Shown: piece after piece, positions 33,734 to 40,611 of the stretch | Position numbering within the stretch: the first letter of the stretch is position 1 | Layout: the number at the start of each line of letters is the position of its first letter | Assembly (NCBI RefSeq): GCF_028737215.1 | Contig: NZ_JAQZAM010000012.1 | Coordinates: forward strand, 124,001-188,000 | Direction of reading: 5' to 3' | Length of the DNA stretch: 64,000 nt | Origin: Actinomycetospora chibensis | GTDB lineage: Bacteria; Actinomycetota; Actinomycetes; Mycobacteriales; Pseudonocardiaceae | Notes under the pieces: model-generated | Databases searched by the model: none | What the model saw: the letters and a program-made list of their open reading frames with translations, nothing else | What the model was told of the DNA's origin: nothing | Made by a program: the position numbers and the translations under genes

Positions 33734-34567
33734 TCAGGCCGGCGCGGTCCACGCCCCCCGGGTGACGAGCACGTCGCGCAGCAGATCGGGCCGGTCGGTC
33801 ATGAGCCCGTCGACCCCGAGGTCGAGCAGGCGGTGCATCTCCGAGGTCCGGTCGACCGTCCAGACGTGCACCTCGATCCCGAGCGCGTGCGCCGTGGCGA
33901 CCATCGCGGGGTCGATCACCGTGAGGGAGCCGAAGCGCACCGGCAGCTGCGCCAGATCGCCGTGCACGCGGAGCACGCGGTCCAGCGGGCGCCGGAGCAG
34001 CGACGGCGCCACGGCCCGTCCCCGCAGCCGCAGCGCCGAGCGGCTCGCGAGCCCGGTGACGACGCGGTCGCCGAACCGTGCCCGGACCGCCTGCAGGCGG
34101 CTCTCGTCCATGCTCGCGACGGCCACCCGCTCGGCCACGTCGTCGCGTTCGAGCAGACGGAGCATCGGCGCGAGGCTGCCCGGAGCCTTGAGGTCGACGT
34201 TGAACCGCGTCTCCGGCAGCGCCTCGAGCACCTCCTCGAGGCGCGGCAGCGGCTCGCGCCCGCGCAGCCGCACGCCGGCGAGGTCGGCCCAGGGCATCGT
34301 GCGCAGCACCCCGGGATGGCCCGCGACGCGGCGCAGGGTGGCGTCGTGGTGCACGACGAGGACGCCGTCCGCGGTGGCGTGGACGTCGGTCTCGACGTGG
34401 GTGTAGCCCTCGTCGACCGCCCTCCGGAACGCGGCCAGCGAGTTCTCCAGGCCCTCGAGCTCGCCGATGTGCCAGCCGCGGTGCGCGAACGCGCGCGGGG
34501 TCCGCCCGGCCAGGTACGGGTGCTGCGCCGGGGTCACGTCCGCGGAGTCTGCCCGGTCGCCGGCCAT
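33734..34567 (-). CDS. Glycerophosphodiester phosphodiesterase
   Basis: A 277-residue TIM-barrel GDPD. AFAHRGWHIGELEGLENSLAAFRRAVDEGYTHVETDVHATADGVLVVHHDATLRR holds, in separate segments, the HRG, E-N, ExD and H residues that build the metal-dependent active site. VDLKAP and VHVWTVDR are later strands, and VDGLMTDRPDLL closes the barrel. It hydrolyses glycerophosphodiesters to glycerol-3-phosphate and an alcohol. No signal peptide is visible, so it probably acts inside the cell. The ATG at 34567 is preferred; the frame is open to 34648. Confidence 0.92.
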   Translation of the reverse strand: MAGDRADSADVTPAQHPYLAGRTPRAFAHRGWHIGELEGLENSLAAFRRAVDEGYTHVETDVHATADGVLVVHHDATLRRVAGHPGVLRTMPWADLAGVRLRGREPLPRLEEVLEALPETRFNVDLKAPGSLAPMLRLLERDDVAERVAVASMDESRLQAVRARFGDRVVTGLASRSALRLRGRAVAPSLLRRPLDRVLRVHGDLAQLPVRFGSLTVIDPAMVATAHALGIEVHVWTVDRTSEMHRLLDLGVDGLMTDRPDLLRDVLVTRGAWTAPA

Positions 34568-38513: not shown

Positions 38514-38616
38514 GCCCTCCCCACGCCATCCATGTGGATGGTGCACGGAGGGCGGGGCGCGCGCAAGTCCGCGTCGCGGGTGCAGGGATTCTCGACACGA
38601 CCGCACCCGGTCTGGG

Positions 38617-38622
38617 TAGCGT
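38617..38622 (+). promoter_or_regulatory. Leaderless -10 element of the UGSC operon (TAGCGT)
   Basis: TAGCGT ends 7 bases before the GTG at 38630, matching the leaderless pattern elsewhere. No ribosome-binding site is seen. Confidence 0.4.
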
Positions 38623-38629
38623 GCCGTCC

Positions 38630-40078
38630 GTGCCCACGACGGTGTCCGCCCCCGTCCCCGACGACGGGCTCGTCGTGGTGGTCAAGCAGGACTGCCCGAC
38701 CTGCCAGCTGGTCGCTCCGGTGCTCGGGGACCTCGACGCGACCGTCTACAGCCAGGACGACCCAACGTTCCCGGACGGCGTCGCCGTCGTCGACGACACC
38801 GGCCTCGACGCGAGCCTCGCACTGGGCATCGACGTGGTCCCGACGCTGCTGCGCCGCCGGGGCGGCGCCGAGACCGACCGCGCCGAGGGCTGGGACCGGG
38901 CGCGCTGGCGCGAGCTGTCCGGCGTCGCCGGCCTCGGCGCGGAGCTCACCGACTGGAAGCCGGGCTGCGGCTCGCGCACCCACGATCCGGCGGTGGCCGA
39001 GGAGCTGCTGGTGCGCACCCGCGGGCACGAACTGCACGCCCGGCGCGTGGAGCTCGCCGGGCTCGAGGACGAGGCCGAGGCGCTCTACGACCGCGGCTGG
39101 ACCGACGGGCTCCCGGTGGTGGCGCCGACGCCGGCGCGCGTGCTGCGGATGCTGGCCGGGACGTCACGGGCGCCCGACGAGGTCGTCGCCACCGTGCCGC
39201 CGAACCTCGTGCCGGCGACCGTCGAGAAGGTCGCCATCAACGCCGTCCTCGCGGGCTGCCGCCCCGAGTACCTCCCCGTGGTGCTCGCCGCCGTCGAGGC
39301 CGCCTGCGCCGAGGAGTTCAACGCCCACGGCCTGCTCGCCACCACGTGGGGCGCCGCGCCGGCCGTCCTGGTCCACGGCCCGATCGCGTGCCGGATCGGG
39401 GTCAACACCGGGGGCAACGCGCTGGGGCAGGGCACCCGGGCGAACTCAACGATCGGGCGCGCGCTGCAGCTGGTGATCCGCAACGTCGGTGGCGGGCGTC
39501 CCGGCGAGGTCGACCGCGCGACCCTGGGCCAGCCCGGCAAGGTGGGGCTCTGCTTCGCCGAGGACGAGCAGCGCTCGCCGTGGGAGCCGCTCTCGGTCTC
39601 GCGCGGGGTCCCGGCGGGGGCCTCGGCGGTGACGGTGTTCGCCGCCGAGGGCGCCCACGGCGTCGTCGACCAGATCTCGCGGACGCCCGAGTCGCTGGCG
39701 CGGTCGCTCGCCCGGGGGCTGCGCGGCGTCGGGCACCCCAAGCTCGCGCCCGGGTTCGACGCGGTGCTCGTGGTCGTCCCCGAGCACACCGCGGTCTTCG
39801 CCGAGGCGGGCTGGGACCGGGCCCGCCTGCACGCCGAGCTCGACGAGCTGCTCCTGCTGGCGCCCGAGGAGATCGCGCGCGGCGCCGACGGCATCGACGA
39901 GGGCATGCCGGCGCCACGGCACCGGCCGCTGGGGCCGCGTCCGAAGTTCCGTCCCGGCGGGCTGATGATCGCCGTCGCCGGCGGGGGAGCGGGGAAGTTC
40001 TCCGCCGTCCTCGGCGGCTGGGTCGGCGGCCCCGGCGGCAGCACGCCCGTCACCCGCGTCATCGAGGAGGACCCGTGA
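38630..40078 (+). CDS. Thioredoxin-fold protein with UGSC-associated domain
   Basis: 482 residues. The N-terminal 105 residues look like a thioredoxin fold: KQDCPTCQLVAP gives a CxxC pair (Cys22, Cys25), and GIDVVPTLL the cis-proline. KPGCGSRTHDP carries a further Cys. The large C-terminal domain (YDRGWTDGLPVVAPTPARVLRML, PPNLVPATVEKVAINAVLAGCRPEYLPVVLAA, CRIGVNTGGNALGQG) is found next to UGSC proteins. Predicted cytosolic redox partner of the selenoprotein with which it is translationally coupled (GTGA overlap at 40075). GTG at 38630 chosen because the thioredoxin fold starts soon after and a -10 lies before it. Confidence 0.78.
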   Translation: MPTTVSAPVPDDGLVVVVKQDCPTCQLVAPVLGDLDATVYSQDDPTFPDGVAVVDDTGLDASLALGIDVVPTLLRRRGGAETDRAEGWDRARWRELSGVAGLGAELTDWKPGCGSRTHDPAVAEELLVRTRGHELHARRVELAGLEDEAEALYDRGWTDGLPVVAPTPARVLRMLAGTSRAPDEVVATVPPNLVPATVEKVAINAVLAGCRPEYLPVVLAAVEAACAEEFNAHGLLATTWGAAPAVLVHGPIACRIGVNTGGNALGQGTRANSTIGRALQLVIRNVGGGRPGEVDRATLGQPGKVGLCFAEDEQRSPWEPLSVSRGVPAGASAVTVFAAEGAHGVVDQISRTPESLARSLARGLRGVGHPKLAPGFDAVLVVVPEHTAVFAEAGWDRARLHAELDELLLLAPEEIARGADGIDEGMPAPRHRPLGPRPKFRPGGLMIAVAGGGAGKFSAVLGGWVGGPGGSTPVTRVIEEDP

Positions 40079-40611
40079 GCTCCCTGATCGTCCTGGACCC
40101 CACCGACGAGGCACGCCCCGCCGCCCGCACCGTCGGGCCGCGTCCCGACGACCTCGCCGGGCGCACCGTCGGGCTGCTCGACATCTCGAAGCCCCGCGGC
40201 GAGGTCTTCCTCGACCGCCTGGAGACCCTGCTCGCCGAGCGGGGCGCGGCGGTCCGGCGCTACGCCAAGCCGACCTTCACCCGCCCCGCGCCCGCCGACC
40301 TGCGCGCGGAGATCGCCGCCGAGTGCGACGTGGTGATCGAGGCCCTCGCCGATTGAGGCTCGTGCACGTCGTGCAGTGTGCACGACCTCGCCGCCCTCGA
40401 GGCCGACGGCGTGACGGCCACGTTCGTCGCGTCCACGGAGTTCGTCTCCGCCACCGACGCGCAGGCGCGCGCCCTCGGCTTCGCCGGCGTGCCGGCGGTC
40501 TACGTCGCCCACCCGATCCAGGACCGCACCGACGCGGAGATGGCCGCGCTCGCCGACGAGGCGCTGCCGCGGGTCCTCGCAGCGGTCACCGGGGACACCG
40601 CGGGCCCCTGA
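40075..40611 (+). CDS. UGSC-family selenoprotein (in-frame TGA = selenocysteine)
   Basis: 178 residues if TGA at 40354-40356 is read as selenocysteine (residue 94). Before it: IAAECDVVIEALAD; after it: G-S-C-T-S-C-S-V-H-D-L, so the motif is U-G-S-C exactly. The frame stays open for 85 further codons (VTATFVASTEFVSATDAQARALGF, then VPAVYVAHPIQD), which is the conserved C-terminal half of the UGSC family. The family is known to have Cys or Sec at this site. A SECIS-like hairpin starts at the TGA. A standard gene caller would report a 93-residue protein and perhaps a 77-residue fragment from 40378. Redox chemistry is likely; substrate unknown. Confidence 0.9.
40354..40389 (+). promoter_or_regulatory. 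Bacterial SECIS element with Sec UGA codon
   Basis: Directly at the UGA, GAGG (40355-40358) pairs with CCTC (40386-40389). After a bulged C, TCGTGCAC (40360-40367) pairs with GTGCACGA (40378-40385). The apical loop is ten bases, 40368-40377. Position and size match SelB-binding bacterial SECIS hairpins. Confidence 0.85.

What the first reader, a model, noticed from the sequence alone, without database searches (positions are those of the whole stretch)
40075..40611. UGSC-family selenoprotein: an in-frame TGA encodes selenocysteine
Seen: frame stays open across TGA (40354-40356) with 93 codons before and 84 after plus stop, and the TGA lies exactly where the family motif U-G-S-C-T-S-C-S-V-H-D puts its first residue. 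Established: the UGSC protein family takes its name from a Sec/Cys-G-S-C motif. Inference: this is a functional selenoprotein that standard annotation would split or truncate. A premature stop followed by an accidental open frame would not preserve the family's C-terminal half.
Basis: partly seen in the sequence, partly recalled or inferred. Interest (0 to 1): 0.95.

Follow-up and report, generated by a model that had tools for sequence, protein, structure and literature searches.

The report
UGSC selenoprotein with thioredoxin partner
An in-frame TGA codon in this bacterial gene likely encodes selenocysteine, making it one more member of the already known UGSC selenoprotein family; the fresher part is its neighbour, a gene for a thioredoxin-domain protein that overlaps it, matches no Pfam or NCBIfam family, and in seven more distant genomes carries an in-frame TGA too.

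Summary
The open frame alone proves little at 75% GC (106 of 869 TGAs do as well). Conservation does: dN/dS after the TGA is low, 95 of 96 subfamily loci (window's gene included) have TGA there and the other has TAG in a genome whose tRNA-Sec anticodon is CTA, a hairpin downstream is conserved with compensatory changes, and the genome carries selA, selB, selC and selD. Less expected: the gene overlaps an upstream gene for a thioredoxin-domain protein without a family model; the pair is kept together widely; in seven genomes that partner has its own in-frame TGA plus hairpin at an otherwise invariant Cys. UGSC is predicted to have a Rossmann-like fold and shows remote, moderate profile similarity to glycine/proline reductase selenoprotein B (GRDB), suggesting a GrdB-like selenoenzyme with a dedicated thioredoxin reductant (inferred).

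The parts
40075..40611 (+). UGSC-family (seleno)protein gene, GTG start, TGA stop at 40609-40611, 178 residues when the internal TGA is read through
40354..40356 (+). in-frame TGA, predicted selenocysteine codon (residue 94)
40368..40386 (+). SECIS-like hairpin: 8-bp stem 40368-40375/40379-40386, loop 40376-40378 (GTG); the loop starts 19 nt after the TGA
   Evidence: 97.4% of cells paired in 58 distinct 39-mers, changes on both sides at two pairs
38621..40078 (+). partner gene, 485 aa, N-terminal thioredoxin domain plus a conserved large region without a family model; its stop codon overlaps the UGSC start (GTGA)
   Evidence: the start at 38621 follows database protein P0002 of 485 aa, the mechanical ORF starts at 38534
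38693..38704 (+). CPTC redox motif of the partner's thioredoxin domain
38966..38968 (+). Cys codon of the partner's PGCGS motif; TGA at this place in seven other genomes
40064..40070 (+). GAGGAGG, likely ribosome-binding site of the UGSC gene inside the partner's 3' end
   Evidence: sequence only

Best explanation
The TGA at 40354-40356 likely encodes selenocysteine, so 40075-40611 is predicted to make a full-length UGSC-family selenoprotein, likely translated together with the overlapping upstream thioredoxin-domain gene. Step 1 (genes shown, function predicted): SelA, SelD and tRNA-Sec are encoded and would supply Sec-tRNA; SelB would be recruited by the hairpin whose loop starts 19 nt after the UGA and insert Sec at residue 94. 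Step 2 (predicted structure): Sec94 sits before a helix in a Rossmann-like alpha/beta domain, with Cys97 and Cys100 close by in the chain. Step 3 (inferred): by analogy with glycine/proline reductase selenoprotein B, Sec94 attacks a small substrate, Cys97 or Cys100 resolves a selenenylsulfide, and the partner's CPTC thioredoxin domain, with its third invariant PG-Cys/Sec-GS site, re-reduces it. The substrate is not known. The confidence given is for step 1; for step 3 I would say about 0.45.
For: Family scores over curated cut-offs. Codon at the site in 110 loci: 103 TGA, 2 TAG, 4 TGC, 1 TGT; in the 96 with the GSC[TA][ST]C motif 95 TGA and 1 TAG (the window's gene and some genomes fetched twice are included; 58 distinct 39-mers). 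The TAG genome (G074) has a tRNA-Sec family match of 64.2 bits with anticodon CTA next to selA, and both of its UGSC copies carry TAG. Cys at the site in the near relatives P0124 and P0125. Hairpin: 97.4% of cells paired against at most 58.8% when slid; both sides change at pair (18,30) in 3 sequences and at (21,27) in 1; Ser codon AGT in 55 of 58 at the loop against 133 of 2180 Ser codons in partner genes. Sec genes in the genome and a second TGA gene with molybdopterin oxidoreductase domains between selA/selB and tRNA-Sec. All 19 of 100 genomes (the window's included) with a TGA or TAG UGSC copy have a tRNA-Sec match of 64 bits or more, against 51 of the other 81, p = 0.0006 without correction for kinship; selA over its cut-off in 18 of the 19, 52 of the other 81. 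In Actinomycetospora chiangmaiensis SelA, SelB and SelD were detected by proteomics at low abundance and formate removal depended on selenium (PMC7176365, passages). Gene pair. GRDB profile similarity. Models.
Against: No protein-level proof of Sec in this gene. In the window's own sequence the minimum-energy fold takes another register than the conserved hairpin. P0122 (Trp), P0123 (Arg), P0137 (Ser) and P0209 (Gly) have sense codons other than Cys at the site; P0122 and P0123 are 67% and 60% identical and come from contigs of 930 and 978 bases. G003 has the gene and tRNA-Sec but no selA over the cut-off (83% complete, 640 contigs). The genome match of selB is only just over its cut-off. The GRDB link is moderate: HHalign probability 84.7% with the pooled GRDB alignment, but 22% and 14% with its two halves and 30% with the motif masked, and no PF07355 row by hmmscan. 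The partner's thioredoxin as reductant is inference; no complex was modelled, and the neighbourhood gave no substrate clue.
Confidence: 0.9

Rival explanations
1. The TGA is a genuine premature stop (pseudogene or sequencing error) and only the 93-residue N-terminal half is made.
For: In GC-rich DNA long frames stay open by chance: 106 of 869 TGAs do as well. Database gene calls end there in 94 of 120 listed proteins.
Against: dN/dS after the TGA is 0.04-0.14 against 10 loci of the genus; a stop stands at the same codon in all 96 loci with this motif among the 110 read, once as TAG with a CTA tRNA-Sec; the hairpin covaries; the invariant residues Cys97, Asp104, Phe123, His146 and Pro147 lie after it.
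Confidence: 0.03
2. The TGA is read through as another amino acid (such as Trp or Arg by a near-cognate tRNA) and the protein works without selenium.
For: P0122, P0123 and P0209 have Trp, Arg and Gly at the site.
Against: Of the 26 longer proteins listed 21 have Cys; Sec genes and hairpin are present; the TAG/CTA switch in G074 follows tRNA-Sec.
Confidence: 0.03
3. The protein is a selenoprotein, but a general thiol-disulfide oxidoreductase of thioredoxin-like fold, as suggested in 2008, not a GrdB-like substrate reductase. (This rival agrees with the Sec step and differs in step 3.)
For: [quoted passage not shown] UxxC motif; the partner has a thioredoxin domain.
Against: The AlphaFold2 model (pLDDT 92.5) is a Rossmann-like alpha/beta domain and the 50 VIA rows shown include receiver, B12-binding, lumazine synthase and periplasmic-binding chains; profile similarity to GRDB with the two Sec residues aligned is weakened but not lost when the motif is masked. 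A listing without thioredoxins does not exclude that fold.
Confidence: 0.35
4. The partner and UGSC act separately and are adjacent only by shared ancestry of the gene order. (Agrees with the Sec step.)
For: No joint structure or interaction was tested.
Against: A partner homologue in 57 of 57 loci over 9 kb outside the genus, recorded as Actinomycetota, Gammaproteobacteria, Deltaproteobacteria and Acidobacteria, with no other neighbour family in more than 15 of the 57 among the 16 largest clusters printed, frames overlapping the two genes apart; GTGA start/stop overlap in the window; a partner homologue matched in all 110 loci, also in the Cys subfamilies.
Confidence: 0.15

Closest known systems
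UGSC family (seleno)protein, NCBIfam NF041046 / Pfam PF24696 (UGSC-containing protein of PMC2398784)
   Same: Scores over both curated cut-offs, invariant [U/C]GSC, Sec at the first motif position, SECIS-like hairpin.
   Different: Nothing that would set it apart; one more member, in Actinomycetospora.
Glycine/sarcosine/betaine reductase selenoprotein B and PrdB-like proteins (GRDB, PF07355)
   Same: Profile alignment over 105 columns puts Sec94 on the GRDB Sec, followed by a helix and a GIPT-like strand; score 44.0 against at most 20.8 in 30 column-shuffled controls.
   Different: No PF07355 row by hmmscan; UGSC is 178 aa and pairs with a thioredoxin-domain partner, while the 20 GRDB loci searched (2-4 kb each) hold no partner match better than E 0.6.
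UAG-decoded selenoproteins of Geodermatophilaceae (reported in ref. 56 of PMC5330540, passage)
   Same: G074 has TAG in both UGSC genes and a tRNA-Sec with CTA.
   Different: The window's own gene uses TGA; G074's family name is not given by the tools, so the assignment is inferred.
VPGUxxT family thioredoxin-like selenoprotein (NF041383) and GOS_B/GOS_C (NF041374, NF045500), compared with the partner
   Same: A PG-U motif, or a thioredoxin-like fold with Sec, by Table 1 of PMC13188914 and section 7 of PMC2398784.
   Different: The partner and two of its TGA forms gave no NF041383, NF041374 or NF045500 row at E up to 10; the tool's filters drop most matches above about 0.1.

Membership tests
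UGSC family (NF041046, PF24696) | score over the curated cut-off | tested here: met
   156.7 bits (cut-off 125) and 162.7 bits (cut-off 25)
UGSC family (NF041046, PF24696) | [U/C]-G-S-C motif | tested here: met
   positions 94-97 invariant in the 53 members aligned, with TGA shown as C
bacterial selenoprotein | selA, selB, selC, selD in the genome | tested here: met
   selB only just over its cut-off as a genome match (242.4 against 242.25), 255.6 bits as a protein, next to selA
bacterial selenoprotein | SECIS-like hairpin after the codon with G/U in the apical loop | tested here: met
   (conserved structure; function in SelB binding not tested; the rule for the loop is recalled)
bacterial selenoprotein | selenium present in the protein | not testable with these tools
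   needs Se-75 labelling or mass spectrometry
GRDB (PF07355) | hmmscan match over the gathering score | tested here: not met
   no PF07355 row for the window's protein and none among the 23 families found for 53 members at E up to 10
GRDB-like mechanism (works like, not member) | remote profile similarity with the Sec residues aligned | tested here: inconclusive
   probability 84.7%, score 44.0; 30% and 32.1 with the motif masked; controls at most 20.8; halves 22% and 14%
thioredoxin-fold proteins (for UGSC) | thioredoxin fold | tested here: inconclusive
   model is Rossmann-like; no thioredoxin row in the 50 shown
thioredoxin fold (for the partner's residues 8-102) | fold of thioredoxin with CxxC | tested here: met
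NCBIfam thioredoxin TIGR01068 (for the partner) | score over the curated cut-off | tested here: not met
   12.2 bits against 96.8

The most novel reading that the evidence does not exclude
UGSC and its overlapping partner form one two-subunit selenoenzyme: a GrdB-related substrate-reducing subunit plus a dedicated reductant carrying a thioredoxin domain and a second PG-[Cys/Sec]-GS redox site. The partner is an undescribed selenoprotein family, and in a group of apparently marine Acidimicrobiales-type bacteria both subunits of the operon carry selenocysteine.
Probability: 0.5. Interest if true: 0.62.

Novelty: new member of a known kind. Interest (0 to 1): 0.42.

Why it matters
The gene itself adds one clear member to a selenoprotein family described by 2008, still without an assigned function in the 2026 review passages seen, and cut at the TGA in 94 of the 120 database proteins listed. 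What could move the field is the partner: a gene kept beside UGSC across phyla that gives the family a first testable reductant and, in seven genomes, a second Sec site. With the GRDB similarity it turns 'UGSC, function unknown' into a concrete question: which bond does this two-gene reductase break?

Full report
OBSERVATION. 40075-40611 reads as one frame through TGA 40354-40356: 93 codons before, 84 after, stop at 40609-40611. At 74.6% GC such a frame is not rare: 106 of 869 TGAs, counted in six frames, do as well. The product scores 156.7 bits against NF041046 (cut-off 125) and 162.7 against PF24696 (cut-off 25), on both sides of the TGA. dN/dS against 10 loci of the genus (8 genomes, two of them read twice) is 0.04-0.14 over 77 codons after the TGA; before it, it is 0.18-0.28 in nine and zero in the nearest, L048, whose value after is 0.04. 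L022 is the window's own gene and was left out of that range. The source is an Actinomycetospora: the nearest named locus is A. callitridis (97%), and G017, told to be of the same genus, holds a contig of the same length as that record; the species is not told.

CODON. Over 110 loci (30, 80) the codon at the Sec position is TGA 103, TAG 2, TGC 4, TGT 1. In the 96 loci with the motif GSC[TA][ST]C after it, it is TGA 95 times and TAG once; the script picked them among loci with a stop there, but the listing shows no sense codon with this motif. The window's gene and several genomes reached twice are in the count: 58 distinct 39-mers remain. The TAG case, G074, has two UGSC copies, both TAG; its tRNA-Sec family match of 64.2 bits lies next to selA and has anticodon CTA, which ARAGORN labels tRNA-Pyl. 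Sec at UAG with such tRNAs, UGSC-motif proteins included, is reported for Geodermatophilaceae (PMC5330540, passages). In the protein database 2518 proteins passed the E-value among 7993 scored and 120 are listed. Of these 94 are at most 120 aa and all 94 end in ALAD, just before the TGA. Of the other 26, 21 have Cys at the site (P0124 and P0125 are the nearest), one each Trp (P0122), Arg (P0123), Ser (P0137) and Gly (P0209), and P0139 lacks the motif. The contigs of P0122 and P0123 are under 1 kb.

SECIS. Nucleotides 15-22 and 26-33 counted from the TGA (40368-40375, 40379-40386) form a hairpin with loop GTN. In 58 distinct 39-mers 97.4% of cells pair, at most 58.8% if slid by 1-3; pair (18,30) is G-C 34, G-T 21, A-T 3, pair (21,27) C-G 57, T-A 1; breaks are at (16,32) in 7, (22,26) in 3 and (15,33) in 2. 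The loop codon is AGT in 55 and TGT in 3 of 58, while AGT is 133 of 2180 Ser codons in the partner genes. The window's own minimum-energy fold takes another register (-25 kcal/mol, z -2.45), which is against the simplest picture.

MACHINERY. tRNA-Sec 73.3 bits with anticodon TCA, selA 393 bits, selB 255.6 bits as a protein, on contig C31, where a gene with molybdopterin oxidoreductase domains and its own in-frame TGA also lies (formate dehydrogenase is inferred); selD 392.5 bits on the window's contig C3. Across 100 genomes, the window's included, 22 have a UGSC match, 17 over the cut-off; 19 have a copy with TGA or TAG (G007's match is cut short), 3 (G043, G058, G087) only copies without a stop. 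I took 64 bits as the mark of a real tRNA-Sec, because the next score is 51.5 (the family's own cut-off, 47, is passed by 75 of 100): 70 of 100 pass, 19 of the 19, 51 of the other 81, p = 0.0006 without correction for kinship. selA is over its cut-off in 70 of 100, in 18 of the 19 and 52 of the other 81; the exception is G003, 83% complete. G087, with Cys only, has no selA match. In A. chiangmaiensis SelA, SelB and SelD were seen by proteomics at low abundance and formate removal depended on selenium (PMC7176365, passages).

MECHANISM. The UGSC model (pLDDT 92.5) is Rossmann-like with Sec94 between strand 86-92 and helix 95-110. Profile comparison with 17 GRDB/PrdB-like sequences, from 17 of the 20 loci fetched, gives 84.7% probability and score 44.0 over 105 columns with the Sec positions aligned; masking the motif leaves 32.1 (30%), 30 column-shuffled controls reach 20.8, the partner alignment as a negative control 17.7; the two halves of the GRDB set alone give 22% and 14%. 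I infer a GrdB-like selenoenzyme re-reduced by the partner; only the parts are shown, not the reaction. I hold Sec at the TGA at 0.9 and this mechanism at about 0.45.

LITERATURE. UGSC-containing protein is one of the major families of PMC2398784 (passages and section 7), with a fusion to 'Unknown_1', and is listed in PMC5029168, PMC9312934 and PMC13188914 (passages; of the last also section 7 parts 1 and 2). So the finding itself is a known kind. None of the passages and sections I saw describes the partner as a selenoprotein, but Unknown_1 or GOS_A could be it.

Noticed in passing
L096:4874-4876, L113:4856-4858, and L205-L209: The UGSC partner gene itself has an in-frame TGA at the PG-U-GS site, with a conserved hairpin after it, in seven genomes.
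   Followed up: yes
L034, L044, L163 (G074): Both UGSC genes of this genome have TAG at the Sec position and its tRNA-Sec has anticodon CTA, labelled tRNA-Pyl by ARAGORN.
   Followed up: yes
L166 (G002:C1:733112-736070) and the like in G004, G006, G008, G010, G011, G012, G015: Other genomes of the genus hold two divergent UGSC-like genes about 2.5 kb apart, each with one TGA; in L166 partner-type matches lie beside them. Absent from the window's genome.
   Followed up: partly
L172 (G088:C9:37688-38368): tRNA-Sec lies just downstream of the UGSC gene, with selA about 4.5 kb away on the other side.
   Followed up: no
L030 and L171 (G021): The partner gene next to UGSC matches only in pieces, in two frames and without residues 183-378; broken or misassembled.
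   Followed up: no
L211-L230: GRDB-family (PF07355) matches are found in 73 of 198 genomes of the order searched; 19 of the 20 loci fetched carry an in-frame TGA at TAT/TST-U-GTGTRC or VP-U-PVCH type motifs.
   Followed up: partly
G177:C22:58682-59812, G188:C4:28923-30005, G233:C22, G239:C136, G251:C15, G277:C1 and others: Some lower-scoring partner-domain paralogues also show one or more stops inside the match.
   Followed up: no
L070: A contig filed under a Bifidobacterium breve MAG carries UGSC and neighbours clustering with those of Actinomycetota/Ilumatobacteraceae MAG loci; likely mislabelled.
   Followed up: no
window 34055-34145: ARAGORN calls a tRNA-Ala (anticodon AGC) inside long open frames of both strands; it may be a false call.
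   Followed up: no
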